Source of the DNA: a virus
Direction: 5' to 3' (one strand)
DNA length: 20,880 nt
Virus record (IMG/VR): IMGVR_UViG_3300021961_000767
Location: 1 to 20,880 of that record
How positions within the stretch are numbered: position 1 is the stretch's first letter; every line of letters starts with the position of its first letter. The position numbers and the translations under genes were made by a program. The notes under the pieces were generated by a model. The model searched no databases, had not been told where the DNA came from, and was given only the letters and a program-made list of their open reading frames with translations. This document shows, piece after piece, positions 2,137 to 18,300 of this stretch.

Positions 2137-3534
2137 ATGGCGATTCTCGATATCTTCAAACGCAAGAAGGCCGTTGCCGAAAGCAATACGCTATTCGGTC
2201 AAACTGCCCTCGGAAATAACATTGTCTATCAGGGCAATGACAGTCGCCCGACTGTAAATACGCAGATTCTGTATGTCACCACATCCGGCTCGACCGATGC
2301 CGGAAGGGTGGTTGATATTGGTACGCTGACGCGCAATAGCACCGTGATGGCCTGCGTCAATCTCAAGGCTAGGGCGCTCAGTCAGTTGCCAATCAAGATT
2401 ATGCGGCGCATGGAAGATGGGACGATGGTAGATGCCTTGGCGTCACCGGATGTTCCGACGCGGGAGAAAACTCGCGCCAAAGCGGTTATGTCGCTGCTGG
2501 AGTCTCCCAATCAATTCCAAAGTCAATATGAGTTTTGGTATCAATGGCTCATGTGGCTGGAACTGTCGGGGGAATCCTTTACGCTGTGGTGGCGCAAGGA
2601 TCAGGAGAATCCTTCGCAGGTTCCGATGGAGATGTATATCTTGGACAGCACCTTGATTGCTGTTCAGATTACTCCGACGCGCTATCCGTCTTATCGCCTA
2701 TCCACGCCGTCCTACGGGTTTAGCAAAGATGAGCCTTTGAAGGCGCATCAGGTAATGCACGTTAAAGAGGCTGGATGGCAAGGGTCTGCTGGCTTTAACA
2801 AGGGGTTGCTGGCCGTTGAGCTTGTCGGGCTGGATCAAGACATCGACCTATACGCCAACTATGTGATGCTCAATGGCGCAAAGCCGAGCGGAATGTTTAC
2901 CACCGAATCGGTGATTCCAGACCAAAAGTACAAAGAGATTGCCAGCCGGTTAAAGGAAGCCTGGGCGTCAATGACGGCCAGCCGCCGCCAAGACCCGTCG
3001 AAGCCGGGACAAGGAATGCTGCTCGACCAAGGCATGAAGTATGTGCCGCTGGATATGCTGACCTTGCAAGATGCGGATGCTGCCAATCTAAAAATCCAAA
3101 CCATGAAGCGCATCTGCGGCCTGTTTGGCGTTCCTCCGTCGATGATCGGGATAGCAGACCAAAAGTACAACAATACGCAAACGGTCATGGATGAGTTTTA
3201 TAAGAGCGCAATGTATCCGATGGTTGTGAACATCCAGCAAAAGCTCAAGCAGCACCTTTTAAATGGCTATCCGTCCTTGTATGTAGAGTTTGATACCAAG
3301 GACTTCTTGAAGGGTGCGCCATTGGATCAGATGAATTTTGTTGCGTCTGGCGTAAGCAATGGCATAATTAGTCCTAATGAGGCGCGTGAATACCTCAACA
3401 TGGCGAAGATGGCCGGTGCTGACGCGCTCAAAGACGATGCGAAACCTTCAGATGGGATTGCCGGAACATCGCCTCAAGATACTGGTGGGGGCGGTGGAAA
3501 CCAGCGCAGAAGGATGAACATTGGGACAACCTGA
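2137..3534 (+). CDS. Portal protein (HK97 family)
   Basis: Forms the dodecameric ring at one capsid vertex through which DNA enters and leaves and to which the connector binds. The 465-residue product starts with the typical MAILDIFKRKK. It carries family-like segments: GRVVDIGTLTRNSTVMACVN near the N-terminus, GLDQDIDLYANYVMLNGAKP mid-protein, FGVPPSMIG, and YNNTQTVMDEFYKSAMYP at about 344-361, which belongs to the long helical stem and wing. Length is normal for the Phage_portal family. The C-terminus is Gly-rich (GGGGGN) and probably disordered. GAGG (2128-2131) before the ATG serves as ribosome binding site. The end overlaps the next small ORF by 14 bases. Confidence 0.94.
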   Translation: MAILDIFKRKKAVAESNTLFGQTALGNNIVYQGNDSRPTVNTQILYVTTSGSTDAGRVVDIGTLTRNSTVMACVNLKARALSQLPIKIMRRMEDGTMVDALASPDVPTREKTRAKAVMSLLESPNQFQSQYEFWYQWLMWLELSGESFTLWWRKDQENPSQVPMEMYILDSTLIAVQITPTRYPSYRLSTPSYGFSKDEPLKAHQVMHVKEAGWQGSAGFNKGLLAVELVGLDQDIDLYANYVMLNGAKPSGMFTTESVIPDQKYKEIASRLKEAWASMTASRRQDPSKPGQGMLLDQGMKYVPLDMLTLQDADAANLKIQTMKRICGLFGVPPSMIGIADQKYNNTQTVMDEFYKSAMYPMVVNIQQKLKQHLLNGYPSLYVEFDTKDFLKGAPLDQMNFVASGVSNGIISPNEAREYLNMAKMAGADALKDDAKPSDGIAGTSPQDTGGGGGNQRRRMNIGTT

Positions 3535-3739: not shown

Positions 3740-4436
3740 GGCTCGCATTACAACTTGGGGTCCGCGAGAAGGTTGCGATGGCCGCAAGTTTAATTACAAG
3801 CCCGAGGCATTTATGTCTTGGGCTGAATCTTTTGGGGCGTCCGGCAGGCCGCTTCCCATGTATGTCAACCACGAATCTCAGGGAATTCCGGTCGGAGAGT
3901 GGACCGAATTTGCTTTTGACGATGAAGGGATGACTGCGACAGGTCGAATCTATACAGAAACCAGTTCTGGCAGCGATCTGTATAAGATTATGAAAGAATC
4001 TCCGGCCATGTTTGGTGGGGTTTCTGTCGGTGCATATGCCGACGAATATGAGATGGTTGACTCTGCTGGCGAACCGGATGACTCGGATGACGCCTATTTC
4101 TCCATCGTCAAGGGTGGGCTGCGCGAAGTTAGCGTAGTCATGCATCCCAACAATCCCTCGGCTGCGGTTCATTCGCTGGAGTTCTTCCGCGAGGATGGAT
4201 CAGCCGATCTCAAGATTCTTGAGCAAACCCTGCGCGATGCTGGGTTGTCGAGGAAAGATGCGGTCGCTGCCGCGTCTATTTTCAAGCGCGTTCTTGAGCA
4301 ACGTGATGTTGTTCAACCTGCGCCTGAGAACGCGCCGGTTCAGAGCGATTCTGATGCGGAAGCGACCACCCAATTGCTCGCTGCGCTACAGCAACGCGAG
4401 CTTCTTAAAGCTCTTACCTCAAAGGTTTCCCAATGA
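3657..4436 (+). CDS. Prohead maturation protease (HK97 gp4-like, S78)
   Basis: Serine protease that is packaged in the procapsid, removes the scaffold domain of the capsid protein and then degrades itself. I chose ATG 3657 (259 residues) because AAGGGG (3645-3650) lies 6 bases upstream; an upstream in-frame TTG at 3639 would add 6 residues without a ribosome site. With this start the core runs from about 27 to 180. The candidate catalytic residues are H72 in MYVNHES and S123 in FGGVSVGA, with E157 in LREVSVVMHP as the possible third member. The C-terminal 80 residues are helical, acidic and Gln-rich, as is usual for the part that targets the enzyme to the scaffold. The stop overlaps the capsid gene start (ATGA). 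Confidence 0.88.
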   Translation: MTQQMLLMCEAKLSLNESAAGRKSGQIEARITTWGPREGCDGRKFNYKPEAFMSWAESFGASGRPLPMYVNHESQGIPVGEWTEFAFDDEGMTATGRIYTETSSGSDLYKIMKESPAMFGGVSVGAYADEYEMVDSAGEPDDSDDAYFSIVKGGLREVSVVMHPNNPSAAVHSLEFFREDGSADLKILEQTLRDAGLSRKDAVAAASIFKRVLEQRDVVQPAPENAPVQSDSDAEATTQLLAALQQRELLKALTSKVSQ

Positions 4437-5779
4437 AAGAGATCATTGAAAAGCTGGACGCTATTGAAGCGTCCAATCTGTCGAAGGTCGAAGCAGTCAC
4501 CGCCAAGGTTGACGAGGCCATCGAGTCCATGAAGAACGAAGTGGCTGAGAAAGTTTCGGCCCTGGAAGCCAAGGTTGCTGCGGTTCAAGCTCCCGAGATC
4601 ATTCGTCCGGTCGCCAAATCCGTTCGTCAAGACGTTAACCGTTTGGTGCGTGAGCAACTGCGCGACATCGCCTCTGGCAAGTCCGCTTTTGAGCGCGAAC
4701 TGAAGATGTTTGCTGATGAAGCTCAGTATCACGCCTACCTGCAAGAAGCGTCCGCGCTGACCGCTGGCGGCGACGGCAAAGGCGGCCGCACCGCGTATGA
4801 TCCGGTGTTTGCTGCGCTGCGTCTTGGCAATCCGATGCGCGGCATTTCGCGTACCGTTGCTACTGATGGTTCCAGCTACCAGTTCCGCGTCAAGACCGGC
4901 AATGCTGGCGCTCAATGGGGTTATGGCATCCAGAACAACGGATCGGCCACGACTGAAAACACCAGCATTTGGCAGATCGTGATGAAGGACATCAACGTCC
5001 AGTTCCCGATCCGCACGGCGGCGCTCGATGACATCGACGGCCTTGAGGCCAATGTCGTTGACGATATGCTGGCCGAGTTCGCGCAAAGCGAAGCTCTGTC
5101 GATGGTGCAGAACGATGACCAAAGCGGCACCGGCACGACCGTTGCCACGGGCGGCGCTGATGGCCTGCGTGGCTTGAATCAGTATGGCGGCGCAAACAGC
5201 GTTTACGCTGGCGGCACTACCTCGGCTGCGGCCTTTGGTTCTTCCGGCACCGGCTCGACTTCCGGCCTGCATGACCTGGCAACTTATGATCAGTTGACCA
5301 CCAACGCGAACACCGTTGGCGCAAACAACGTCACCTATAACGACGTTATCAATCTGATCTATGCGCTTCCGCAGCAGTATTGGACGGATGCGGCGCGGTT
5401 TATGATTAATCCGGTTCTGCTCAACGCCATCCGCGCACTCAAGGATGACAATGGCGCTCCGATCTTTAATCGTAACGAAGGTCTGTCGGTTAACGGCATC
5501 GTTGGTCAGTTGCTTGGCTTTGATGTGGTGGTCAACAAGTATGTTGACAACCCGTCGCAAGCCTCGGCAGGTTCGGCTGGCACGACTTCGCTTTATCCGA
5601 TGTACTTTGCCGACTGGTCGCGCTTCCATACCATTGTTGATCGCCTCAACATGGTGATGCGTCGCTACGATCAGACCCTCCCTGGCTACATCACCTTCTT
5701 TGGCGAGAAGCGCCTGGGAACCTCGGTTCGTGACCCGAACAGCGGCGTTCGTTATCGCTCGACTGGCACAGCGACCTGA
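4433..5779 (+). CDS. Major capsid protein 1 (HK97 fold, with scaffold delta domain)
   Basis: Main shell subunit, probably made as a fused scaffold-capsid precursor. Residues 1 to about 104 are charged and helical (coiled-coil pattern EKLDAIEASNLSKVEAVTAKV), matching the HK97 delta domain in size and place. The mature part probably begins near LQEASALTAGG (103-113) and has the Phage_capsid pattern: YDPVFAALRLGNPMR (122-136), a central beta-rich region, and a C-terminal GYITFFGEKRLGTSVRDP (418-435). AAAGG (4421-4425) precedes the ATG, which overlaps the protease stop. From 4433 to 5629 the gene has no TTA, CTA or TCA codon. That bias fits very high expression and explains a 429-codon open frame on the other strand. 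It is followed by a hairpin and then a paralog. Confidence 0.93.
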   Translation: MKEIIEKLDAIEASNLSKVEAVTAKVDEAIESMKNEVAEKVSALEAKVAAVQAPEIIRPVAKSVRQDVNRLVREQLRDIASGKSAFERELKMFADEAQYHAYLQEASALTAGGDGKGGRTAYDPVFAALRLGNPMRGISRTVATDGSSYQFRVKTGNAGAQWGYGIQNNGSATTENTSIWQIVMKDINVQFPIRTAALDDIDGLEANVVDDMLAEFAQSEALSMVQNDDQSGTGTTVATGGADGLRGLNQYGGANSVYAGGTTSAAAFGSSGTGSTSGLHDLATYDQLTTNANTVGANNVTYNDVINLIYALPQQYWTDAARFMINPVLLNAIRALKDDNGAPIFNRNEGLSVNGIVGQLLGFDVVVNKYVDNPSQASAGSAGTTSLYPMYFADWSRFHTIVDRLNMVMRRYDQTLPGYITFFGEKRLGTSVRDPNSGVRYRSTGTAT

Positions 5780-5839: not shown

Positions 5840-6859
5840 ATGACGGTCACAGAAAAAATTCTTGATGGCATCAAAAGCGCGATCCATGAGGGCGGTAAGC
5901 AAGTTATCAGCCTGACGGAAGCGTCGAGTATCACCGGATCAGGTTCCGGTGTGGGTGGCCGAATTGTCTTTGATGACGTATTTGCGGCCTTGCGATACGC
6001 CAATCCGTTTCGGATGGGTTCACGAATCATGCCGGTTTCCGGTTCTGACGCGATGTTTGTCGCCAAGACAGGCAACGCGACAAATCAGGCGGGAAATCCC
6101 TGGGGCTATCCGGTCCAGGATAACCAAGGCAGTCCCAATACAAATACAACGATCTGGCAATTGCCGGTTCGTGCAATTGCAGCCACTCTTCCAATCCGCA
6201 CCGCGGTCATGTCCGATGTCAATGGACTTGAAGCGGAACTGGTTGAAGATTTGATGATGGAATTCGCGCAGCTAGAAGGCGCTTCAATGGCGATCAACAA
6301 TGATCAGGCCGGAAGCACTACCACCACAACTGGCGCAACCTCCGGGCTTCGCGGTTTGGATAGCTACGCGGATGGCGCGTCTGTTTCTGCGTTTGGAACC
6401 TCGGGCACCGCAATCACCAATGGTATTCATTCGATCTCGACGCAGACTGCAACGACTTCGATTGCTTACACAGACATTACGGCGGCGGCTTCTCGGCTAC
6501 CGGCTCAGTATTGGGCCATGCCGGATGTTGCTTGGCACATCAATCCTTCGACGATTCAAGCTCTGCGCGATCTGACTGACTCGCAAGGGCTTCCATTGTT
6601 CCTGGAGATTGGTGACGAAGATGGCGCTGCGGTTGGTCGCATCTTTGGATGGCCGGTCATCCCGAATCCATATCTGTCTGCCTCTTATCCGGTTTATCTA
6701 GCGCATTGGCCGCGGTTCCTGACCATTGGCGATACGGAAGAGATGTCGATTCAGATGATGGAGCAAAGCGCCCCTGGCTTTGTGACGCTGTTTGCTGAGA
6801 AGCGAGTAGTGTCCACGGTCAAAGACCCGTTCGCTGGCGTTCGTATTAAGGTGGTCTGA
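5840..6859 (+). CDS. Second HK97-fold capsid protein, paralog of capsid protein 1, without scaffold domain
   Basis: A 339-residue protein that aligns with residues of about 102-442 of capsid protein 1. Shared patterns include L-EAS-ITG-GGR (25-41), DDVFAALRYANPFR (45-58), LPIRTAVMSDVNGLEAELVED (within 117-137, near-match to FPIRTAALDDIDGLEANVVDD), GLRGL, LPAQYW, and GFVTLFAEKRVVSTVKDP (313-330). It lacks the ~100-residue charged N-terminus, so it has no delta domain of its own and probably cannot start assembly alone. It uses codons that capsid protein 1 avoids (TCA, CTA). The ribosome site is weak (AAGCGAG before AACAAC-ATG). Both suggest a lower dose. It could be a minor or vertex subunit or an alternative shell protein. 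Which one is unknown. Confidence 0.85.
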   Translation: MTVTEKILDGIKSAIHEGGKQVISLTEASSITGSGSGVGGRIVFDDVFAALRYANPFRMGSRIMPVSGSDAMFVAKTGNATNQAGNPWGYPVQDNQGSPNTNTTIWQLPVRAIAATLPIRTAVMSDVNGLEAELVEDLMMEFAQLEGASMAINNDQAGSTTTTTGATSGLRGLDSYADGASVSAFGTSGTAITNGIHSISTQTATTSIAYTDITAAASRLPAQYWAMPDVAWHINPSTIQALRDLTDSQGLPLFLEIGDEDGAAVGRIFGWPVIPNPYLSASYPVYLAHWPRFLTIGDTEEMSIQMMEQSAPGFVTLFAEKRVVSTVKDPFAGVRIKVV

Positions 6860-7524
6860 TGTCAACCGGCACGTTGTACGATGCAGTTCCCGCTTTAGGC
6901 GGGACTCGGAATCCATTCAATTACGAAAAGATTGAGGAGATTTCTCGCGACAATGTGACTGCTTGGCTGACAATGGAAGAGGTTACGCAGCATCTTAATC
7001 TCTTTGATGATGAGAGTCAGGACGTATACATCGCTAGTCTTGAGCTTGCGACGAGACAGGCTATTGAGGACTATCTAGGCATCTCCATTTTCCCAATTTC
7101 CTATCGGGTTTGGTATGCCGCCTCTTCGCTCTATGGCGAACCTCTTGCGCTTGATTTGCCGGAAGTTTCTCAGAGCAACTACCCAAGTCCGCTTGGTATC
7201 ACGATCATCAAAGTTGCGTATTACAACTCCAGCAATGTCGCCGTTACGTTAAGCAATACCGATTACTTCTATGATGGGTCAGGCAATCGGATTGTTGTTG
7301 ATACGATGCCATCTGACATTAGCTATCAGATTGCTAATCCGGTGTTTGTGGAATATTCGACTGCGGCCAATCTGCTTGCTGCCTATCCGGTAGTCAAGCA
7401 GGCGGCTTTGTTGATGCTCACGCATTTGTACAACCATCGCAGCGACACCGAGGATCGGATCGTCAGAACGATTCCTTATGGCGTTGCTTCGCTGCTGCGT
7501 AAGTACAAGCCGCTGGTGATGTGA
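6859..7524 (+). CDS. Head-tail connector protein (HK97 gp6-like)
   Basis: A 221-residue protein probably forming the ring directly below the portal. The helical first half has the connector pattern: VTAWLTMEEVTQHLNLFDDE, then a helix ending in RQAIEDYLGISIFPISYRVW, followed by a beta-rich middle and a C-terminal helix pair (AALLMLTHLYNHRSDTEDR, then IPYGVASLLRKYKP). That last motif is typical of gp6/Phage_connect-type adaptors. The ATG overlaps the stop of the second capsid gene (TGATG), with AAGGTGG at 6848-6853 as ribosome site. It is somewhat longer than the HK97 protein, with an N-terminal extension of about 30 residues. Confidence 0.78.
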   Translation: MSTGTLYDAVPALGGTRNPFNYEKIEEISRDNVTAWLTMEEVTQHLNLFDDESQDVYIASLELATRQAIEDYLGISIFPISYRVWYAASSLYGEPLALDLPEVSQSNYPSPLGITIIKVAYYNSSNVAVTLSNTDYFYDGSGNRIVVDTMPSDISYQIANPVFVEYSTAANLLAAYPVVKQAALLMLTHLYNHRSDTEDRIVRTIPYGVASLLRKYKPLVM

Positions 7525-7868
7525 TGGCAATCGCTAGGTTTGAGAATATTGCAGTCAACAACTTGACGTTTGGAATCTCAAGTTTTGGCGAACAATCAAC
7601 GACTCAGACAAAGTGGTTTGACACTCGCGCTAGGGTGGCAGATGTTGCTAATAACGTCAGGATTTCTGAGAAGTATCGTTTGTACAGCGACCTAGTGGAG
7701 TTCACGTTAAATTTCACGCCAAACACTAGGGCGATGGCAAACGATCAGAATCTGTACTCAATCACCTGGCGCGGCAAGGATTGGCGAATTACGGATTGTC
7801 GAGAATCCAATGATCGGATGACCGTAATGTTTATGTGCTATCGCAACGACCCGGAAACGGCGGTCTGA
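7524..7868 (+). CDS. Head closure / head-tail joining protein
   Basis: A 114-residue, mainly beta-stranded protein. ITWRGKDWRITDCRESNDR near the C-terminus matches the Phage_H_T_join pattern (strand, GxxWRI, strand, charged loop). Proteins of this family close the bottom of the filled head and dock the tail. I chose ATG 7524, which overlaps the connector stop (TGATG), over the GTG one codon upstream at 7521. The ribosome site is poor (GGTGAT), so translation probably depends on coupling to the upstream gene. Its place between connector and tail terminator is the standard one. Confidence 0.72.
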   Translation: MAIARFENIAVNNLTFGISSFGEQSTTQTKWFDTRARVADVANNVRISEKYRLYSDLVEFTLNFTPNTRAMANDQNLYSITWRGKDWRITDCRESNDRMTVMFMCYRNDPETAV

Positions 7869-7869
7869 T

Positions 7870-8286
7870 ATGGGTCAAAATAGCGTTATTGCATATGCAC
7901 AGGCAATCCAAGCTCAGTTGCAGTCAATAGTGACGCCGGTTCCTGTATATGCGTCCTTTAACCGCAACTTTGCAACCGATCCTAAGTTTTTGGTGTGGAT
8001 GTTGCGCGATGTTCATCAGCCTGTGTATACAGGGCCGGTGCAAAGTGTAAAAGGCATTGATCGACCTATCTTTCAAATCTCCATCTTTACGCAGCAAATT
8101 CAAGATGGGTTTGAACTTAGTCAGTTGGTGATTGATGCGTTGCATGGATACAGCGGGTTATTTGGTGGCCCGACTTATGGTTTCCAGATTTCAAAAGCTG
8201 ATGTAATGTGGCTTTTTAATAGTTACAATAACGACGAAAAGATGTCGCAAATCTACTTGGATTGCACTCTGGACGTTCCGACTTGA
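7870..8286 (+). CDS. Tail terminator/completion protein (DUF3168-like)
   Basis: A 138-residue protein with the DUF3168 layout: an N-terminal helix (IAYAQAIQAQLQSI), then PVYASFN, the loop VYTGPVQSVKGIDRPIFQIS, and a helix FELSQLVIDALHGYSG, followed by strands. Members of this family form the ring capping the tail tube at the head end (lambda gpU/HK97 gp11 type). It starts one base after the head closure stop and ends 35 bases before the first tube gene. Family assignment rests on pattern and position, so a moderate doubt remains. Confidence 0.68.
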   Translation: MGQNSVIAYAQAIQAQLQSIVTPVPVYASFNRNFATDPKFLVWMLRDVHQPVYTGPVQSVKGIDRPIFQISIFTQQIQDGFELSQLVIDALHGYSGLFGGPTYGFQISKADVMWLFNSYNNDEKMSQIYLDCTLDVPT

Positions 8287-8305: not shown

Positions 8306-8321
8306 TTTAGAGGAAATTGTC

Positions 8322-8816
8322 ATGGCTCTGCCTAATCTTGTTTTGCCGGGGTTCAGCGCCGCGCTGTATTGCCAGCCGGGATCAACTCCTACTCCGCTGA
8401 CCGTTACTCAGCTTTCGCTGGTTGCCAGCGTATCTCCAATTGCCGTGTCCGGTAATTTGCTTCCTGTTGAGGCGATTCCCGCTTTCGGTACGGACGATGC
8501 GGTCGCTTCCTATGGCGTTGCTGGTTCGCGGCAGGGAGACAAGATTCCCGTGCAAAACGCTCCGACTTCGATGTCAATCACAGCGGCGTGGAACCCCTCG
8601 GATGCCAATCTGCTGCTGGTTCGCGCTGATTCTTATTCTGGCGTGATTGACCGGACGTTTGTGATCTCTGCGACAGACGGCACCAATATCGTCTATTACG
8701 CATTTAACGGTCGCGTCGGCAATTTCCAAATTGACTCGGCCCCCGGCGCTGAAGCGAAATGTATGTTCACTATTCATCCGCGTGGCAACCAGTTTGGTTG
8801 GTCGAACAACGCATAA
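8322..8816 (+). CDS. Major tail tube protein 1 (first of a tandem pair)
   Basis: A 164-residue, Ala/Gly/Ser-rich, beta-predicted protein. I identify it as a tail tube subunit from position (after the tail terminator, before the assembly chaperones and tape measure), size, and its tandem homolog. It begins MALPNLVLPGFSAALY and ends with IHPRGNQFGWSNNA. Residues 49-83, from VEAIPAFGTDDAV to QNAPTS, are identical to residues 58-92 of the neighbour. A strong AGAGGAAA ribosome site precedes the ATG. It does not obviously match a named tube family, so the role is inferred. The alternative is that one of the pair is a head or tail decoration protein. Confidence 0.7.
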   Translation: MALPNLVLPGFSAALYCQPGSTPTPLTVTQLSLVASVSPIAVSGNLLPVEAIPAFGTDDAVASYGVAGSRQGDKIPVQNAPTSMSITAAWNPSDANLLLVRADSYSGVIDRTFVISATDGTNIVYYAFNGRVGNFQIDSAPGAEAKCMFTIHPRGNQFGWSNNA

Positions 8817-8828
8817 GGAGTAAATAAA

Positions 8829-9347
8829 ATGGCCGCACCTAATGCAGTTCTTCCTGGTTTTTCTGCCGCCCTGTGGATGCAGGACGATGTTACGCCGACC
8901 CCGCTTTCGACCGCCAATTTAGCGGTTTGGGTGGGTCAAGTCGCCGATATTGCAGGCACCGCCGCCAATGGAACCGGCACCGCTGGCGTTCAAGTTCCCG
9001 TTGAGGCAATTCCAGCCTTTGGAACTGATGATGCTGTCGCATCCTATGGCGTAGCTGGCTCCCGTCAGGGCGACAAGATTCCGGTGCAGAACGCCCCGAC
9101 ATCGCTGTCCATCACAGCGGCATGGAATCCTTCCGATGCAGCGTTGCTGCAAATCCGGGCTGATTCTTATGCAGGTACCGTTGATCGGACCTTTGTTGTT
9201 ACGGCGACCGCCGGGGCTTCCACGGTTGCGTATGCGTTCAATGCTCGCGTTGGCAACTTTCAGATTGACGCAGCGCCTGGGGCTGAAGCGAAGTGTATGT
9301 TTACGGTGCATCCCCGCGGCAACCAGTTTGGATGGAGTAACACATGA
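8829..9347 (+). CDS. Tail tube protein 2 (paralog of tube protein 1)
   Basis: A 172-residue homolog of the preceding gene, collinear over the full length: MAAPNAVLPGFSAALW at the start, AAWNPSDA in the middle, VGNFQIDAAPGAEAKCMFTV near the end, and HPRGNQFGWSNT at the C-terminus. The clearest difference is a 9-residue longer Gly/Thr/Ala-rich loop before the conserved block (GTAANGTGTAG, 43-53). A strong AGGAG (8816-8820) overlaps the stop of tube protein 1 and lies 8 bases before this ATG, so the pair is coupled and both should be well made. At DNA level the two copies differ at many synonymous sites, so this is not a recent duplication or an assembly echo. Confidence 0.7.
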   Translation: MAAPNAVLPGFSAALWMQDDVTPTPLSTANLAVWVGQVADIAGTAANGTGTAGVQVPVEAIPAFGTDDAVASYGVAGSRQGDKIPVQNAPTSLSITAAWNPSDAALLQIRADSYAGTVDRTFVVTATAGASTVAYAFNARVGNFQIDAAPGAEAKCMFTVHPRGNQFGWSNT

Positions 9348-9514
9348 CATTAGATGAGTTCGTCGCAGTCTTGGTGGACTTTCACGGCGACCTTGATCTG
9401 ATGGTGCGCGGCCATCCATTCTCGCTGGAGGAAGTGTCTGACGCTTTTGATTTAGCGGAGAATGAAGCGGAGCAAATCATTTTGGCTAAGATGGTTGAGG
9501 CCGCTTCTCAATAG
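9344..9514 (+). CDS. Small acidic hypothetical protein (56 residues)
   Basis: ATG overlaps the stop of tube protein 2 (ATGA) and has TGGAG at 9333-9337 with a 6-base spacer, so translation is credible. The product begins MTLDEFVAVLVDFHGDLDL. It is acidic and probably all helical, with the central segment HPFSLEEVSDAFDLAENEAE and no membrane segment. I do not recognise a family. It sits between the tube and chaperone genes, where lambda-like phages usually have nothing else, so it may be another tail-assembly helper, which is inference. Confidence 0.65.
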   Translation: MTLDEFVAVLVDFHGDLDLMVRGHPFSLEEVSDAFDLAENEAEQIILAKMVEAASQ

Positions 9515-10248: not shown

Positions 10249-10538
10249 ACAATGTGCCAACCGATGATATGCGTAACATTGAAATCATGTTCCATGATGG
10301 CATCATTGGGCCAAAGGCAAGCCTGTTGGCGATTTCTGCGCTGACAACCGGCAATTTAAACTCCAAGCTACAGAAGGGCGCAAAGCCTTATTCCATCAGG
10401 AACGTGCTTCCGTCAACGGTCGATTACGTTTTCCCTCCTCTGTCTCCTGAGCAACAACGCGAACAAGCAAACAGAAGTTTGCTGGCATTTATGCTGCAAA
10501 GCCCTGGCGGCGAAAAGCATTTGCAGGCAGCAAAATGA
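10188..10538 (+). CDS. Tail assembly chaperone, frameshifted T domain (part of the gpG-T fusion)
   Basis: This is the -1 frame extension of the 9742 gene. The fusion joins 149 residues to 116 more (LIQDIHQQVRAWIYAHGG onwards), about 265 in all. In lambda the T domain of gpG-T binds the tape measure and recruits tube subunits. There is no independent start with a ribosome site: the first candidate, GTG 10254, lies just past the stem with no Shine-Dalgarno. The segment carries MRNIEIMFHDGIIGPKASLL and a Pro-rich VFPPLSPEQQREQANRS near the C-terminus. The stop overlaps the next gene (ATGA). Annotating it as a separate GTG gene would be wrong, in my reading. Confidence 0.85.
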   Translation, partial: LIQDIHQQVRAWIYAHGGCPDNVPTDDMRNIEIMFHDGIIGPKASLLAISALTTGNLNSKLQKGAKPYSIRNVLPSTVDYVFPPLSPEQQREQANRSLLAFMLQSPGGEKHLQAAK

Positions 10539-11032
10539 CTAAAGACGTTGAAACCCAATTCTTTGAGCTTGAAGGGTTTGCGGACCTTGAATGGCAGATG
10601 AAGGAAATCATTCATCACGTTCGCGCTGACACAGCTATTCGCCAAAACTTTGTTAAGGCTTTGCGGGTTGCCATGCAGCCAGTATACGAAGAGGTAAAGC
10701 GAACGGCCCCTTATGACAACGAGAATCCTCGCAGTCAATACCGCCCTGTTCACATGAGGGATACGGTTAAGCTCAAAGCTCGATTGCCTACAGACAAAGA
10801 TATGGAATCGGTTTACGCAAACGAGAATGTTGTTGCCGTGGGACTTGTAACGGTCAAGAAGTCAGCCGTTTCTTTGGCGATGGAGTTTGGAACTTCAAGG
10901 ATAGCGCCAAGGGCTTTTATGAGGACTGCATTGAAGGTGAAAGCCCCGGACGCATTAAGAATCTTGAAGTCAGAGCTTTCTAGAATGCTGCCCGAGTATA
11001 TGGCAAAGTTAAATAGGCGAAGAGGTAAGTAA
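10535..11032 (+). CDS. HK97 gp10-like minor tail / tail completion protein
   Basis: A 165-residue protein with the HK97-gp10_like pattern. After a helical N-terminal part come VYEEVKRTAPYDNENPRSQY, then HMRDTVKLKAR, then the hallmark LAMEFGTSRIAPRAFMRTAL (about 119-138), and a basic C-terminus (KLNRRRGK). In HK97 and many relatives this family is encoded between head closure and tail terminator and helps complete the tail end. Here it sits after the frameshifted chaperone and before the tape measure, a displaced position. No good ribosome site is visible, so it probably depends on translation of the frameshifted upstream product or on reinitiation. Confidence 0.75.
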   Translation: MTKDVETQFFELEGFADLEWQMKEIIHHVRADTAIRQNFVKALRVAMQPVYEEVKRTAPYDNENPRSQYRPVHMRDTVKLKARLPTDKDMESVYANENVVAVGLVTVKKSAVSLAMEFGTSRIAPRAFMRTALKVKAPDALRILKSELSRMLPEYMAKLNRRRGK

Positions 11033-11034
11033 TC

Positions 11035-13524
11035 ATGGCTACAGGGCAAACGGCGGCGACACTAGATGTCCGTATGCGAATGGAGACTGGCGAGTTTGTT
11101 GCCGGGGCCACCAAAGCAGCGCAAGAGACAACCAAATTAAAAAATGCCATTGCCCGTGAGATGAAACTTGCGGAAAAGGAGCTTAAAGCTCTTGATTACG
11201 CTACGCAAGACTACGGCAAGACAGTCACTAAAGTCGCTCAGATGGAGCGTGAATTGGCCGAGGGCCGATTCAAAAACTTGCGTCAATCTGAGCAGGGCAA
11301 GTCAGTCGCCGCTCAATTGCTGGCCCAAGCAGCGGCTTATGACAAGATGGCGGCTTCCACGAAAGCCGCTACCAAAGGCTTAACTGAGCAACAAAAGATT
11401 CAACTGTCATATCAGTTGACTGACTTCGTGACGCAGGTTGGTTCTGGTCAAAACGCTATGGTTGCATTCTTGCAACAGGGCGGTCAGTTCAAAGATGTGA
11501 TGGGCGGCTTTGGCAATACGTTCCGTTGGCTAGGAACGCTATTTACGCCATTTCGCGTCGCTGTTGGCGGGGCGGCAACCGCTCTTGGAGTGCTTGTCAC
11601 CGCGTTTTATAAAGGTGCTAAAGAGTCTGCCGACTTTAGGGACAGCATGATTCTAACCAGCAATTTTGCTGGCGTCACAGAGCAATCCATCACTAAATTA
11701 GCCGAGTCATCAAGCAAAAAGCTGAATGTATCAGTCGGGAGCGCAAGGGAATCTTTATATGCACTAGCGGCATCCGGGAAGTTTACGCAGGAGTCTATTG
11801 GCTCAGTCAATCAGATGATCTTGAATCTCTCCAAGCTGACTGGAGATTCCGCTAAGACAACTGCCGAAAAGCTTATTCCATCTCTAGATGGATCAGCTTC
11901 TTCTGCCAAACGCCTTAATGATCAATATGGCTTTTTAACTCTTGCGGAATATAAGCGAATTGAGGCGCTGGAAAAGGCTGGAGATAAACAAAAGGCAATC
12001 AAAGAACTTACTGATTCTTTTAATGCCAATGTAGAAAATCAAAAAAGAAGCCTTGGAGTCATTGAAAAAGCATGGAATGCGATTGGCAATGAAATCAGTC
12101 GAGCCTGGGATGCTATTAAAGGATTTGGACGGGAGAACTTAGAGCAAGACTTGGCGGCAATTGATCGCCAAATTCAAGCAATCCATGAGTCTCAGGCTGA
12201 TATTGCAAAAGCCGCCGGATTGCGCGGCCTTACTCCTGGGCAAATGACGGACCAGTTGTCAAACACTCTTGCGTCTTTGGACGCAAGAAGAACGGCAATC
12301 ATGGCGAAGATTGAAGCTGCCGATAAAGCCGCCAGGAAGGCTCAAGAGGAGCGCAGAAAAATAGATGACCGCGCCGCTGCTGGAGGCATAGACGCGGAGC
12401 TGAAAAAGCAAGAAGAGCTGACCAAAGCTGGCTTTAGACTTCAGCTTGTATCGTTTCAAGACTACGTTGATCAGAAGGCAAAGCTAGAGGCTGAAGCCAA
12501 CGTCAAGATTGAAGAGTTAAGAACAGAAACCACGCGCCAAAATGTTCGCGAAAGATTTCAATTCCAGTTTCTCAACGCCCAAATCTTGGCGAAAAATGAG
12601 CTTGCAATCAGAGAGCAATTAAAGCGTGATCTCAATAAGATTGATATGGATCGCATTTTGGCGATTGCCAAGGCAGAAGGTGAACGCCAAGATATTGCTC
12701 AGAAGGCTGCGGATGACCTTGCGCTTCGCGTTGCCAATGCGACAAGAAGCCTAGGAGAAAAACTTTATCTAGAGAAGATTTCTCTTGATGTTGACAAGGA
12801 AAGAGTGGCGCTTCAGAACAATCTTTTATTCGCCACCGATGCTCAAAAGAAGTCCGCAGAGCAACGCTTTGAGATGGAAAAGCGCATTCAGCAGATTGAG
12901 CAGGATCGTCTGATTGACCCACAGGGCAAGATTGCCATCATCGCCCAACTGCGTAATCTGCAAGATCAGCGAGATGCGTTCAACAAGCTAGAAGAATCGG
13001 TCAAGCGCGTGGGCGACAAGTGGGAGTCCGTGTTCAGCAACATGACTCGCGCCATTGAGTCTTTTGTCAGAACCGGGAAGATGTCCTTTAGCGATCTGAC
13101 TCGCAGCATTATTGCTGACATCTTGGCAATGGAGATGAAGGCTCAGGCAAGCGTTTTGTTTCGTGCGTTCAAAGGCATGGTGATGACTGCCCTGGCATCA
13201 AATACCTCCTTTACAACAGCACCTGGCGTATTTGATACCGGGGCGGTGGCATACGGCAGGGCCACGGGAGGTCCGGTATCTGCCAACACGCCATACATGG
13301 TTGGCGAAAGAGGTCCGGAGTTGTTTATGCCTAGCGGGGCAGGAACGATCATTCCTAACCATGCCCTGGGCGGCATGGGAGGTCAGACAAATATCACCAA
13401 TTACAACATTAGTGCCATTGATGTGAAGTCCTTTGAAGATCGCATCCTTGGAAGTTCTAAAGCAGTCTGGGCGGCAAATGCGTATGCCAGCAAGGGCATT
13501 GCAATGGCTGGCGGGAGAGCGTGA
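11035..13524 (+). CDS. Tail tape measure protein (lambda gpH-like)
   Basis: 829 residues. Sets tail length, fills the tube lumen and is ejected ahead of the DNA. The N-terminal third resembles the TMP_2/gpH family: QKIQLSYQLTDFVTQVGSGQ at about 119, a hydrophobic segment VAVGGAATALGVLVTAFY at about 176-193 that may cross the host membrane, then YALAASGKFT. The middle (about 370-650) is a long charged coiled coil. The C-terminus has the lambda tape-measure C-domain (WESVFSNMTRAIESFVRTGK, about 663-682), then GPVSANTPYMVGERGPELFM and a Gly/Asn-rich end. AGAGGT (11021-11026) precedes the ATG. At about 0.15 nm per helical residue it would suggest a tail of very roughly 120 nm. Confidence 0.93.
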   Translation: MATGQTAATLDVRMRMETGEFVAGATKAAQETTKLKNAIAREMKLAEKELKALDYATQDYGKTVTKVAQMERELAEGRFKNLRQSEQGKSVAAQLLAQAAAYDKMAASTKAATKGLTEQQKIQLSYQLTDFVTQVGSGQNAMVAFLQQGGQFKDVMGGFGNTFRWLGTLFTPFRVAVGGAATALGVLVTAFYKGAKESADFRDSMILTSNFAGVTEQSITKLAESSSKKLNVSVGSARESLYALAASGKFTQESIGSVNQMILNLSKLTGDSAKTTAEKLIPSLDGSASSAKRLNDQYGFLTLAEYKRIEALEKAGDKQKAIKELTDSFNANVENQKRSLGVIEKAWNAIGNEISRAWDAIKGFGRENLEQDLAAIDRQIQAIHESQADIAKAAGLRGLTPGQMTDQLSNTLASLDARRTAIMAKIEAADKAARKAQEERRKIDDRAAAGGIDAELKKQEELTKAGFRLQLVSFQDYVDQKAKLEAEANVKIEELRTETTRQNVRERFQFQFLNAQILAKNELAIREQLKRDLNKIDMDRILAIAKAEGERQDIAQKAADDLALRVANATRSLGEKLYLEKISLDVDKERVALQNNLLFATDAQKKSAEQRFEMEKRIQQIEQDRLIDPQGKIAIIAQLRNLQDQRDAFNKLEESVKRVGDKWESVFSNMTRAIESFVRTGKMSFSDLTRSIIADILAMEMKAQASVLFRAFKGMVMTALASNTSFTTAPGVFDTGAVAYGRATGGPVSANTPYMVGERGPELFMPSGAGTIIPNHALGGMGGQTNITNYNISAIDVKSFEDRILGSSKAVWAANAYASKGIAMAGGRA

Positions 13525-14159
13525 TGTCGTTTCAAACCATTTTTGAGATTCAGCAATCCATGACGGTGAACAACCGTCGAACGGTTGGGCAGCAGGTAAG
13601 CCGCAGCGGTCAGATTCGTACCGCGCAATATCTCACTTCAGTTCCTTGGGTGTTCACGATCACCCCGCACAACTATCTCTACTATCCGCAAGTTAGAGAT
13701 GTGATTCAGTCCATCGACAACCTAGATCGCCAAACCTCAATGGTGATTACATTTGATACGCCAGAGCTTGAGTGGTTTGTAGCCTATCAAGGCGGGGCAT
13801 CTTCTGCCCCGACTACGATGACGCTGGATTCAACGCCAGCCCCAAACGCAACGACGCTTTCTATTACGGGAGTGCCATCTGCTTCTGGGGACATCTTCAA
13901 GGCTGGCGACTTCATCATGGTAGATGGTTACACCTACAAGGTGACTCAGGATGTCGCAAGGGCAGACACGATTTCTGTGCCTATTCATCGTCCTGTGATT
14001 GGATCGCCGACTGCTGGCGCGGCTGTCGCCTGTGCAGAAAACTGTACGTTCAACGTCTATGCGGAAGCTTGTCCAACCTACACGCTGACGCCCATGACTG
14101 ATGGGGCATTTGTCAATTGGGATGGTCCGTTTGTCTTTCGGGAGAACGTCGCACCATGA
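13524..14159 (+). CDS. Distal tail / minor tail protein (lambda gpM position)
   Basis: A 211-residue beta-rich protein directly after the tape measure, where the distal tail protein lies in siphophages. It opens with FQTIFEIQQSMTVNNRRTVG and has SVPWVFTITPHNYLYYPQVR, a strand-helix pattern seen in tail-end ring proteins. A central insert (about 85-165: TMTLDSTPAPNATTLSITG, then FKAGDFIMVDGYTYKVT) looks like a small beta domain, possibly carbohydrate-binding or Ig-like. I chose ATG 13524, overlapping the tape measure stop (TGATG), with GGGAG at 13513-13517; GTG 13521 one codon earlier leaves too short a spacer. Function is assigned by position. Confidence 0.65.
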   Translation: MSFQTIFEIQQSMTVNNRRTVGQQVSRSGQIRTAQYLTSVPWVFTITPHNYLYYPQVRDVIQSIDNLDRQTSMVITFDTPELEWFVAYQGGASSAPTTMTLDSTPAPNATTLSITGVPSASGDIFKAGDFIMVDGYTYKVTQDVARADTISVPIHRPVIGSPTAGAAVACAENCTFNVYAEACPTYTLTPMTDGAFVNWDGPFVFRENVAP

Positions 14160-15255: not shown

Positions 15256-18200
15256 ATGCCATCGTCACTCATTTTGACCGCAATATATGGAAGCATGGCG
15301 GCGGCAACTGCTGCGCTTGGAGCAATTGGCGTTGCCGTTACAACCTTTGCAATCAACTTTGCTGTGTCTGCCGTTATGGCAAGGGCATTTACTCCAAAGA
15401 AAGATTCCCCGCAGGACTTTGGAGTACGCCAGCAAATCCCTCCAAGCTCAGACAATCCGGTTCCGGTGGTATATGGCGAGGCGTGGCTTGCAGGAACATT
15501 CGTTGACGCGGTGCTGAGTACCGATCAGAAAACGATGTACTACGTTCTTGCTATTAGCAATATCTCTGCTAATGGGCAAGTAACGTATGACACCACAAAG
15601 TTCTATTACGGGGATCGGCTAGTCACGTTCGACGGCACCGATCAAACAAAGGTTGTCTCGCTGACGGATACCGCTGGAAACGTAGACACCAAGATTGCGG
15701 ATCAGATGTATGTGTATCTGTACACATCAAACGCATCAGGAGTGATCTCTCCTGTCAATACCGCGCAATATCCGCATCAGGTGATGGGCGGTGGAGACAT
15801 TGACGCTGCGCTGCAATGGCCCTCTACAAACCGGCAAATGACCGGACTGGCGTTTGCCATTGTCAAGCTGATCTATTCCGCTGGAGATGGCGTCACAAGG
15901 CTTGAGCCGCTGACCTTTAAGATCAATCATTCCTTGAATGGAACTGGCGTAGCAAAGCCGGGGGATGTTCTCTATGACTATCTGACCAACGAATTCTATG
16001 GTGGTGCTGTTCCTGCTTCACAGGTCAATGCAACTGCTTGTACTGCGCTGAATTCCTATTCAGATCAAGTTATTACTTACACGCCCTATTCTGGCGGGAG
16101 TGCGACTCAGCCTCGATACAGGATCAATGGCGTTCTGAATACGGGCGACACCGTACTGGCGAACTGCGAGCATATTCTGACTGCTTGCGATTCGTGGTTA
16201 TCGTATGACGCGGCAAGCGGTCAATGGACGCCAGTCATCAATAAAGCGGAAACTGCATCGTTGGCATTTGATGATTCCAACATCATTGGAGAGATCAAGG
16301 TCAGCGTTACCGATCTTTCTTCGACCTACAATCAGATCGAAGTTTCGTTCCCGTTCAAAAACAACAAAGACCAACCTGAGTACATCAGAGCAGCGGTTCC
16401 TGCTGGATTGCTGTTCACCAATGAGCCGGTAAATAAACTTAGCACTTCGTTCAATCTGGTGAACGATAGCGTTCAAGCGTCTTACCTTGCCAATCGAATC
16501 CTAGAGCAATCCCGCGAGGATTTGATTGTTACGTTTGCCTCGGCGTACCCCGGCATTCAGTTGAATGCTGGTGATGTGGTCAGCGTTACTAATGCGGAAT
16601 ATGGATGGAGTGCCAAGTTATTCCGAGTGATGAAGGTCGCGGAGGCATCGCTACCTGATGGCAATCTTGGGGCAAGGTTTGATCTGGCTGAGTACAACGC
16701 CCAAGTCTACGATGACTTTGACATCACCCAATACGAACCTGCGCCAAATGGCGATCTGCCTTCGCCCGAATACTTCTCTGCCCTTGGCGCGCCAACGATT
16801 GCAGCGTCAAGGCCCAACGAGAACCCGCCCACATTTGATGTGCAGGTCACACTACCTTTGACTGGTCGCATTACTTGGGCGACGCTCTACTACACCACAA
16901 ACCCTTCTCCAGCCGCGTATGACTGGAAGGTGCTGCGGCAAGCATCTGCTCCACAGGGAACTGCTGCAACAAATGGCGCGATCTATGGCTGGACAAAGAT
17001 TTCATTGCCAGTTGGGGCTTACTATTTCACTTGGATTGTGGGCAATGAGGTTGGTCAGTCAGCAAGGTCAACGACAAGCGCAGTATTTAACTGGACGCCC
17101 CTAGACGTCTCAGGAGCAATCACGGGGCTGGAGGATGAGATTTATATCCTCGGGTTAGACATCGACGATAAGCTCAGTAAGACTGGCGCAAATATCCTGA
17201 CCGGCACAATCGTCCCGGAGGACTCTGGCGGCATTAAGGCTGGATCAATCACTTGGAATTCCTCGACTGGTCAACTGACTGGTGGAAGCGGCGTCGCAAT
17301 CACAGAAGCGGGAATCATTGGCGCACAGAGCGGCACCGCAAAGTTCACTATTGATACGGCAGGGAATGCCACTTTTGCTGGAGACATCAGTACAGACGGG
17401 GATGCGTATTTTGCTGGCAAAACACAAACCGCAACGCAAATCTTTATTCTTGGAAGTTACTATAACGTGGACTATTCCACGTTTTCGTATGCGACATCGA
17501 ACGCGACAAGCGGTTCAGTTGCTAGGGCGGGGACGTATGGTTATGCCGACGCATCAACATCTGCATTGAATATTGGAATTATTGGATACGCTCCATCAAG
17601 CACAAAAGGGGTCGGAGTTTTTGGGCAAGGTGGTGAATATGGCGGGTACTTCATCAATTCATCTTCTGGCGGGATTGCAGTAGTTGCCTCCGCTTATACT
17701 TCCACAAGTATTGCATTGGCAGTATTAGGCAGGATTCAATGGGGCGGCACTTATATCTATAACGAACCAAGTGGATCAGGCGCATTCATGCGTGATGATG
17801 GTTCTTGGTCTTATGCCGTTCGCCAAACTCCATCAAACTCAGGGACCGCGACAGTCAACTCCAGCAGTCAAATCAGTCTGCTTGGAAGCACCAGCACCGG
17901 GATTGCTGGCGCATACGTTGGGACTTCTGCCTCTGGAAGCACCGTCACATGGACAATCCAAACCACCAGTCCTTCTGATCGCAAGCTCAAACAGGACATT
18001 GAGGATTCCGATCTTGGGCTAGATTTCGTCAATCAACTTCAGCCAAAGAAATACAAACTCAAGGCTGACCCAAAGCAGCAGGTGGGTTATGGTTTCATTG
18101 CTGACGAGGTTGCTGCTCTTGGCGTCCGAGATACTTCTTTGGTGTATCACGAACCGGAGTGGCAGGTTGGGGAGGAAACCGGATTTGACACGATACATTA

Positions 18201-18300
18201 CCCCTCATACGTTGCCATTCTGACCAAGGCAATTCAAGAATTGAGTGCCAAGGTTGATAGTCTGCAAACAGAGATTGCAGCCCTCAAAAACACCCCGTAA
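15256..18300 (+). CDS. Central tail tip protein: gpI-like segment, gpJ-like core, fibre and S74 chaperone
   Basis: 1014 residues, probably the host-recognising tip. Residues 5-45 are hydrophobic and Ala/Gly-rich, followed by SSDNPVPVVYGEAWLAGT; together they resemble the C-terminal half of lambda gpI. A gpJ-like core (tip attachment pattern) spans about 100-500, with an FN3-like domain at about 515-615. Gly/Ser/Thr-rich fibre sequence follows (about 620-895), with GNATFAGDISTDGDAYFAG. The C-terminal 108 residues form an S74 intramolecular chaperone: SDRKLKQDI (S907 is the likely self-cleavage serine), VGYGFIADEV, YPSYVAILTKAIQEL and a closing coiled coil. S74 domains trimerise the fibre and then cut themselves off. 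GAGGA (15243-15247) lies 8 bases before the ATG. Confidence 0.87.
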   Translation: MPSSLILTAIYGSMAAATAALGAIGVAVTTFAINFAVSAVMARAFTPKKDSPQDFGVRQQIPPSSDNPVPVVYGEAWLAGTFVDAVLSTDQKTMYYVLAISNISANGQVTYDTTKFYYGDRLVTFDGTDQTKVVSLTDTAGNVDTKIADQMYVYLYTSNASGVISPVNTAQYPHQVMGGGDIDAALQWPSTNRQMTGLAFAIVKLIYSAGDGVTRLEPLTFKINHSLNGTGVAKPGDVLYDYLTNEFYGGAVPASQVNATACTALNSYSDQVITYTPYSGGSATQPRYRINGVLNTGDTVLANCEHILTACDSWLSYDAASGQWTPVINKAETASLAFDDSNIIGEIKVSVTDLSSTYNQIEVSFPFKNNKDQPEYIRAAVPAGLLFTNEPVNKLSTSFNLVNDSVQASYLANRILEQSREDLIVTFASAYPGIQLNAGDVVSVTNAEYGWSAKLFRVMKVAEASLPDGNLGARFDLAEYNAQVYDDFDITQYEPAPNGDLPSPEYFSALGAPTIAASRPNENPPTFDVQVTLPLTGRITWATLYYTTNPSPAAYDWKVLRQASAPQGTAATNGAIYGWTKISLPVGAYYFTWIVGNEVGQSARSTTSAVFNWTPLDVSGAITGLEDEIYILGLDIDDKLSKTGANILTGTIVPEDSGGIKAGSITWNSSTGQLTGGSGVAITEAGIIGAQSGTAKFTIDTAGNATFAGDISTDGDAYFAGKTQTATQIFILGSYYNVDYSTFSYATSNATSGSVARAGTYGYADASTSALNIGIIGYAPSSTKGVGVFGQGGEYGGYFINSSSGGIAVVASAYTSTSIALAVLGRIQWGGTYIYNEPSGSGAFMRDDGSWSYAVRQTPSNSGTATVNSSSQISLLGSTSTGIAGAYVGTSASGSTVTWTIQTTSPSDRKLKQDIEDSDLGLDFVNQLQPKKYKLKADPKQQVGYGFIADEVAALGVRDTSLVYHEPEWQVGEETGFDTIHYPSYVAILTKAIQELSAKVDSLQTEIAALKNTP

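What the first reader, a model, noticed from the sequence alone, without database searches (positions are those of the whole stretch)
8322..9347. Tandem tail-tube paralogs with an identical 35-residue block but about half of its codons changed
Residues 49-83 of the first and 58-92 of the second are identical, yet 18 of those 35 codons differ, all synonymously. Protein identity with heavy silent divergence means an old duplication (or acquisition of a homolog) with strong purifying selection on both copies. The copies differ mainly at a Gly/Thr-rich loop before the block, which could face outward. A mixed or two-zone tail tube is one possibility.
Basis: partly seen in the sequence, partly recalled or inferred. 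Interest (0 to 1): 0.78.

Follow-up and report, generated by a model that had tools for sequence, protein, structure and literature searches.

The report
Phage tail tube with two paralogs
This virus of bacteria carries two neighbouring genes for the protein that builds its tail tube, and across many related viruses the parts that should hold one ring to the next change in step in both copies while a loop that probably faces outward stays different, which suggests that two kinds of ring share one tail.

Summary
In detail: TTa (8322-8816) and TTb (8829-9347) share a 36-residue identical run with 19 codons changed silently. Both are siphophage tail-tube proteins: 98 of 99 relatives match PHROG 158 'major tail protein'; the TTb model fits lambda gpV at Z 12-13. 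Of 156 deduplicated loci with both neighbouring genes in view, 87 carry A+B, 53 only A, 14 only B; the A/B split is old. New here: the block is the beta2-beta3 loop, the main ring-to-ring contact of tail tubes (PMC8718954), and it co-varies between the two copies of a genome. When A changes there, B changes too in 54 of 67 cases, 50 of 54 identically; in the paralog-specific segment in 6 of 36. Close relatives show parallel amino-acid changes without DNA transfer. Columns that always separate A from B lie only in the beta1-beta2 loop, outward-facing by homology. Best reading: A and B rings stack in one tube, alike at the joints, different on the surface. Ring order and presence in virions are untested; old gene conversion is not fully excluded.

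The parts
8322..8816 (+). TTa, tail tube protein paralog A (164 aa, short beta1-beta2 loop)
   Evidence: ORF; PHROG 158 major tail protein at E 0.024 for this copy, 98 of 99 relatives match it; same fold as TTb in the read-through model
8829..9347 (+). TTb, tail tube protein paralog B (172 aa, 8-residue longer beta1-beta2 loop)
   Evidence: ORF; AlphaFold2 pLDDT 72, pTM 0.72; lambda gpV fold, Foldseek E 1.7e-5, VIA Z 12.6
   Evidence: lies between strands, residues 54-79 pLDDT under 50 in the read-through model
   Evidence: between strands 53-56 and 93-98, residues 66-89 pLDDT under 50
8409..8456 (+). paralog-specific segment of TTa, residues 30-45
   Evidence: columns with no state shared between 92 A and 92 B; residue numbers derived from the alignment printed
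8916..8990 (+). paralog-specific segment of TTb, residues 30-54, Gly/Thr/Asn-rich with 8 extra residues (beta1-beta2 loop)
   Evidence: loop between strands 12-18 and 53-56
8715..8813 (+). C-terminal hairpin of TTa, second segment that co-varies with TTb
   Evidence: B changed in 53 of 89 cells where A changed
9249..9344 (+). C-terminal hairpin of TTb, second segment that co-varies with TTa
   Evidence: strands 131-147 and 155-171
8310..8314 (+). Shine-Dalgarno-like GAGGA of TTa
   Evidence: sequence; same kind of site upstream of the A genes of relatives
8814..8820 (+). TAAGGAG: stop codon of TTa overlapping the Shine-Dalgarno-like site of TTb
   Evidence: sequence; gap between A and B is 8-15 nt in 92 of 92 A+B loci
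11035..13524 (+). tape measure protein (829 aa)
   Evidence: PF06791 5.5e-46, phrog_24 5.5e-79

Best explanation
TTa and TTb are two old paralogs of one siphophage tail tube protein that are made together and stack in the same tube. Shown: they have the tail-tube fold and gene place; they are adjacent, with the stop of A inside the ribosome site of B; the paralogy predates the radiation of the A+B phages; the beta2-beta3 loop (the block) and the C-terminal hairpin change in step in both copies of a genome; the one part that is always different is the beta1-beta2 loop. Inferred: each paralog forms hexameric rings; because a ring must dock on A and on B neighbours (or on one shared partner), the docking loop and its seat are held alike in both copies by selection, while the outward loop is free to be different, giving a tube with two kinds of ring surface. 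The segment after the block (beta3 and helix), which I take to belong more to lateral contacts, drifts more independently, which mildly favours A rings on B rings over A/B mixed inside one ring. Not shown: presence of both in virions, ring order, and what the second surface is for.
For: Fold and family. Three architectures, A+B 87, A only 53, B only 14 of 156 loci with both neighbours seen, so both types can build a tube. Old split, 100/99 branch of 0.23 changes per column. Within-genome block identity 0.965 against 0.866 between genomes over 31 representatives under 92% identity, 0 of 5000 permutations. Of 33 disjoint genome pairs: 22 identical double changes in the block against 1.5 in permuted pairs; in a permutation stratified by divergence, block plus one flanking column 25 against 7.5, 0 of 1000. 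P(B changes | A changed): block 54/67, C-terminal hairpin 53/89, residues 112-139 33/82, N-terminus 19/58, beta3-helix 11/48, paralog-specific segment 6/36. Parallel changes in close relatives with DNA left distinct. Control pair MCP1/MCP2: 9 identical of 27 double changes in shared columns against 69 of 96 for the tube pair. beta2-beta3 loop = largest inter-ring contact, dynamic in monomers, deletion abolishes tube growth (PMC8718954 section 17).
Against: No ring or hetero-assembly could be modelled: the read-through A-B model gave pTM 0.49 and no confident packing. Co-variation could also come from a shared third partner (tape measure, terminator, tip). The rest of the protein also co-varies somewhat (within 0.713, between 0.668). 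Old gene conversion followed by silent saturation is not excluded for distant pairs (one search has no power there), and L047 (22 of 32 block codons the same) looks like a possible recent case. A single tube protein suffices in many relatives. The division of the protein into lateral and axial contacts is by homology, not from a ring model.
Confidence: 0.6

Rival explanations
1. Gene conversion: short tracts are copied between A and B from time to time, which keeps the block alike; silent sites then saturate and hide the event. No co-assembly is needed.
For: Paralogs lie in tandem. Silent sites saturate fast here (window A and L002 A: few protein differences, pS 0.51). L047 has 22 of 32 block codons in common and a 29-nt shared run. 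In one search the test on distant pairs cannot tell.
Against: Within-genome silent likeness is not higher in the block (0.418) than in the rest (0.481), although protein likeness is. Longest in-register DNA run within genomes: median 17, top 29; between genomes 99th percentile 29, maximum 47. In close relatives 37 distinct parallel changes have flanking silent identity 0.70 between orthologues but 0.57 (the larger of the two genomes) between the two copies of one genome; several pairs (L049/L202 col 147, L022/L038 and L016/L038 col 73, L034/L078 col 147) have 0.86-0.96 against 0.33-0.45. In 12 of the 37 the own value reached the orthologue value.
Confidence: 0.17
2. One paralog is the bulk tube and the other a minor ring at an end (starter or cap ring next to the tip or the terminator), as AFP and PVC particles have several tube-like proteins.
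For: End rings also need the same stacking loop; one paralog-specific loop would suit a special neighbour. Multiple tube-like chains exist in eCIS (recalled).
Against: Both types occur as the only tube gene in relatives (53 A-only, 14 B-only of 156), both have good ribosome sites, and overall constraint is similar (mean protein distance 0.198 for A and 0.164 for B over 66 representatives).
Confidence: 0.2
3. Redundancy or dosage: two interchangeable copies raise the supply of tube protein; differences in the outer loop are drift.
For: A+B phages have longer tape-measure-like ORFs (median 686 aa, n 54) than A-only phages (598, n 37), so need more tube protein (not corrected for kinship).
Against: The beta1-beta2 loop states are fixed: all 92 A against all 92 B, always A first and B second, which drift would not keep.
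Confidence: 0.12
4. The two proteins make alternative tails (one or the other per particle), for instance to escape a host defence that senses tail tube protein such as DSR2.
For: DSR2 recognises phage tail tube proteins (abstracts of PMC11087589 and PMC10981675 as shown in the search listing).
Against: Tight tandem, coupled start, and parallel change of the stacking loop, which separate tubes would not require of each other.
Confidence: 0.05

Closest known systems
Lambda gpV-type major tail (tube) protein; PHROG 158
   Same: Predicted fold with long flexible beta2-beta3 loop; family match of 98 of 99 relatives; gene place before the tape measure gene.
   Different: Two genes instead of one; no C-terminal Ig-like domain; window TTb itself has no family hit and TTa only E 0.024.
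T5 pb6 (duplicated and fused tube domain, pseudo-hexameric trimer ring; PMC5717097, passages seen)
   Same: A tube built from two non-identical copies of the tube domain.
   Different: Here two separate polypeptides from two genes; ring make-up unknown.
T6SS Hcp2-Hcp3 heterohexamer of Bacteroides fragilis (PDB 9vne, title; Hcp heterohexamers mentioned in PMC13323088 discussion, passages seen; source paper not held)
   Same: Paralogous tube proteins of one system that co-assemble; same fold class (Z 8.9).
   Different: Secretion system with effector loading, mixed within one ring; no phage tail.
SPP1 gp17.1 / gp17.1* (recalled)
   Same: Two versions of the tube protein in one tail.
   Different: SPP1 makes both from one gene; the longer form carries an extra domain.
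Methylophilaceae phage P19250A (KX815270)
   Same: Same gene order, tandem capsid-type genes, tube homolog 58.7% identical to TTb.
   Different: Single A-type tube gene.

Membership tests
Siphophage major tail tube protein (lambda gpV type) | beta-sandwich with flanking helix and long beta2-beta3 loop | tested here: met
   AlphaFold2 model of TTb pLDDT 72; Foldseek best hits YDC107 and lambda tube, E 7.8e-6 and 1.7e-5; VIA Z 12-13 over 127-135 residues
Siphophage major tail tube protein (lambda gpV type) | sequence family match | tested here: met
   98 of 99 relatives match phrog_158 at E up to 0.5, best 2.9e-8; the window's own copies: TTb none, TTa E 0.024; Pfam and NCBIfam none; no PDB sequence relative
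Siphophage major tail tube protein (lambda gpV type) | gene place between head-tail connector genes and tape measure gene | tested here: met
   head-tail adaptor 6859-7524 (phrog_40), tape measure 11035-13524
Siphophage major tail tube protein (lambda gpV type) | hexameric rings present in the virion | not testable with these tools
   no particle data; multimers cannot be modelled here
T5 pb6-type fused tube | two tube domains in one polypeptide | tested here: not met
   two ORFs with a stop and their own starts
Hetero-oligomeric tube (Hcp heterohexamer-like working) | two paralogs of one system co-assemble | tested here: inconclusive
   co-variation of the stacking loop supports contact; the read-through model showed no confident packing

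The most novel reading that the evidence does not exclude
A widespread group of siphophages builds a tail tube from two kinds of ring encoded by two paralogous genes; the ring-to-ring interface of both paralogs is kept matched within each genome by parallel amino-acid replacement and not by DNA exchange, while one outward loop is kept different, so that the tail has two surface types along its length.
Probability: 0.5. Interest if true: 0.75.

Novelty: new variant of a known kind. Interest (0 to 1): 0.6.

Why it matters
Siphophage tails are generally taken to be one tube protein repeated. [quoted passage not shown] It would also be a clean case of paralogs that co-evolve residue by residue at a shared joint without gene conversion, a pattern that could be used to find other mixed assemblies in sequence data alone.

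Tried and rejected
Plain 'frozen block' reading: rejected, because the block varies between phages and moves together in both copies. Recent tandem duplication: rejected by the tree.

Independent-pairs test of single columns on a tree of 66 A+B genomes: few starred pairs (1-4 in the columns whose output I saw; the print was cut), no such column could reach significance; not used. Gene-conversion test on all 33 pairs: silent sites saturated (orthologue 0.45, crossed 0.41), no power; replaced by close pairs. Read-through A-B model: both halves fold alike, no confident arrangement, so no support for or against hetero-contacts.

The tape-measure length difference is confounded with kinship: the A-only loci that I listed, from both A clades, have 571-651 aa, but no formal correction was made. 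Prevalence cannot be read, because each scan returned the 80 loci most like its query (tube B of the window, P19250A, L051). 17 of 173 deduplicated loci lack one neighbour in view and are left out of the 156. Two loci carry a broken copy: L014 (A) and L127 (B); they may be assembly faults. They are left out of the pair analyses, as are all loci with incomplete genes. L127's two rows were dropped before alignment A1 (102 selected rows, 100 used). Genome contigs gave 2 loci only.

Literature: phrase searches for two tail tube or major tail proteins gave no report of a two-paralog siphophage tube in the listings; only the held open-licence library was searched, and few of the listed papers were opened. 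[quoted passage not shown] Sf11 has two chains in the fold list, but its paper lists one tail tube protein, gp24 (passages).

Full report
What is there. The window is a 20,880-base virus record with the left part of a siphophage structural module: terminase 424-2103, portal-sized ORF 2137-3534, two capsid-type genes 4433-5779 and 5840-6859, connector 6859-7524, two small ORFs, TTa 8322-8816, TTb 8829-9347, small ORFs, tape measure 11035-13524, distal tail protein 13521-14159. TTa and TTb are 123 of 163 aligned residues identical; the 35-residue block is exact, with 18 silently changed codons, and the true identical run is 36 residues with 19 changed codons. Silent sites of the pair are saturated (pS 0.73), replacement sites are not (pN 0.20, block 0).

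What they are. Neither copy has a Pfam, NCBIfam or strong PHROG hit of its own, but 98 of 99 family members match PHROG 158, major tail protein, with a best E of 2.9e-8. The AlphaFold2 model of TTb (pLDDT 72.1, pTM 0.72, 99 rows) matches solved tail tubes: YDC107 and lambda gpV by Foldseek (E 7.8e-6, 1.7e-5) and by VIA-align (Z 13.2 and 12.6). The order of elements is that of a tail tube protein: strand 12-18, strand 53-56, long loop, strand 93-98, helix 104-115, long strands to the end. The block is exactly the long loop between the second and third of these strands, with pLDDT under 50 at 66-89. In the review PMC8718954 (section 17 read) the beta2-beta3 loop is the largest inter-ring contact of most tubes, is mobile in monomers, and its loss stops tube growth. 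TTa shows the same loop in the read-through model (residues 54-79 under 50).

How the pair is distributed. Three scans of IMG/VR and one of genome contigs with P19250A and the window gave 220 loci, 173 after removal of repeats; in 156 both neighbours of the tube gene are in view: A+B 87, A only 53, B only 14, and two with a broken copy. A proteins have 160-165 residues, B proteins 172-176. B lies 8-15 nt behind A in 92 of 92 loci, in the window with the stop of A inside the ribosome site of B. The tree separates A from B on a 100/99 branch of 0.23 changes per column, with A-only and B-only genes inside or beside the A+B genes; one B-only row, L219, sits at the dividing point. So the two types are old, both can serve as the only tube gene, and copy number has changed several times. 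The scans were similarity-ranked, so the fractions are not prevalences.

The new observation: matched joints. For 92 A+B genomes, A and B of the same genome are 97.8% identical in the block, A and B of different genomes 88.8% (0 of 2000 permutations); outside the block 71.5% and 66.9%. With 31 representatives under 92% identity the values are 96.5 and 86.6 (block) and 71.3 and 66.8 (rest), 0 of 5000 each. In 33 disjoint genome pairs (from 66 representatives) the block shows 38 changes in A, 49 in B, 25 sites changed in both, 22 of them identically; permuted pairs give 1.5. The C-terminal segment (alignment columns 140-173) shows 79, 65, 32 and 24 (permuted 2.8). Counting cells in which A and B agree in one genome, the chance that B has changed in the other genome when A has is 54/67 in the block, 53/89 in the C-terminal hairpin, 33/82 in 112-139, 19/58 at the N-terminus, 11/48 in beta3-helix and 6/36 in the paralog-specific segment; of the double changes 50/54 and 48/53 are identical in block and hairpin (each genome pair is counted in both directions). 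Permutation within divergence strata leaves the block (25 against 7.5), the hairpin (24 against 8.0) and, less, 112-139 (12 against 5.9, 3 of 1000) above chance; N-terminus 47 of 1000, beta3-helix 272 of 1000, paralog-specific segment 910 of 1000. The tandem capsid-type pair, as a control for shared composition, has 9 identical of 27 double changes in shared columns, against 69 of 96 for the tube pair.

Gene conversion or selection? Within-genome silent likeness is 0.418 in the block and 0.481 outside (permuted between genomes 0.394 and 0.421): the part most alike in protein is not the part most alike in DNA. Shared DNA runs within genomes (median 17, top 29 nt) do not exceed the between-genome range (median 14, 99th percentile 29, maximum 47). 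In close relatives, 37 distinct parallel changes have flanking silent identity 0.70 between orthologues, and 0.57 (the larger of the two genomes) between A and B of one genome; in 12 of 37 the latter reached the former. The clearest cases have orthologue identity 0.86-0.96 and A/B identity 0.33-0.45, for example L022/L038 S to A at column 73, which is block residue 74 of TTb. For distant pairs silent sites are saturated and nothing can be said, and L047 may be a recent conversion (22 of 32 codons). So parallel replacement is well supported for some changes and is the better account for the rest.

What stays different. Columns in which no A of 92 shares a state with any B of 92 lie only at TTb residues 30-54, with eight extra residues in B. 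That is the loop between the first two strands. PMC8718954 says of this loop that it touches the Ig-like domain in lambda and the outer sheath in the V. cholerae T6SS, i.e. it faces outward.

Mechanism. The simplest account is that A rings and B rings stack in the same tube. The loop that docks on the next ring and, by my inference, its seat in the C-terminal hairpin must fit whichever ring comes next, so selection keeps both copies alike as the joint drifts; the outward loop has no such duty and carries the difference. The weak coupling of the beta3-helix segment mildly favours whole A rings and whole B rings over mixed rings, but which residues make lateral contacts was not modelled. A shared third partner (tape measure protein, terminator) would give the same pattern and would still place both proteins in one tube. 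A+B phages have longer tape-measure-like ORFs (median 686 against 598 aa, n 54 and 37; B only 658, n 6), uncorrected for kinship.

Known relatives. T5 pb6 holds two tube domains in one chain and forms pseudo-hexamers (PMC5717097, passages). T6SS Hcp paralogs form heterohexamers (PDB 9vne title; PMC13323088 discussion passages). The tandem phage pair may work like these but is a member of neither. Five phrase searches found no report of a siphophage tube from two paralogous genes in their listings. The one cultured relative, P19250A, has a single A-type gene; PMC8163748 (passages) describes it as a siphovirus of freshwater Methylophilales.

Noticed in passing
4433-5779 and 5840-6859: Two tandem HK97-type capsid genes (PF05065 8.6e-30 and 2.4e-21; 146 of 333 aligned residues identical). 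All 72 deduplicated loci with enough upstream sequence (A+B 38, A 26, B 8) carry both, including phages with one tube gene, so this pair is the more constant of the two duplications. The second gene lacks most of the N-terminal region of the first.
   Followed up: partly
L014 about 7622-7991 and L127 3955-4485: Broken tube genes: A of L014 has an internal loss and a frame shift with B intact; B of L127 changes frame near its end. Real decay or assembly fault.
   Followed up: partly
L047 7494-8519: Highest block codon likeness between A and B (22 of 32) and a 29-nt shared run: the best candidate for a recent gene conversion.
   Followed up: partly
window 11035-13524 and relatives: Tape-measure-like ORFs are longer in A+B phages (median 686 aa, n 54) than in A-only phages (598 aa, n 37); not corrected for kinship.
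   Followed up: partly
10535-11032: An HK97-gp10 / 'tail completion or Neck1' type gene lies just before the tape measure gene, not with the connector genes.
   Followed up: no
9344-9514: A 56-aa ORF starts inside the stop region of TTb; some relatives have a gap of similar size after the tube gene, others none.
   Followed up: no
15256-18300: Large tail protein ending in an endosialidase-type chaperone domain (PF13884, residues 907-954).
   Followed up: no
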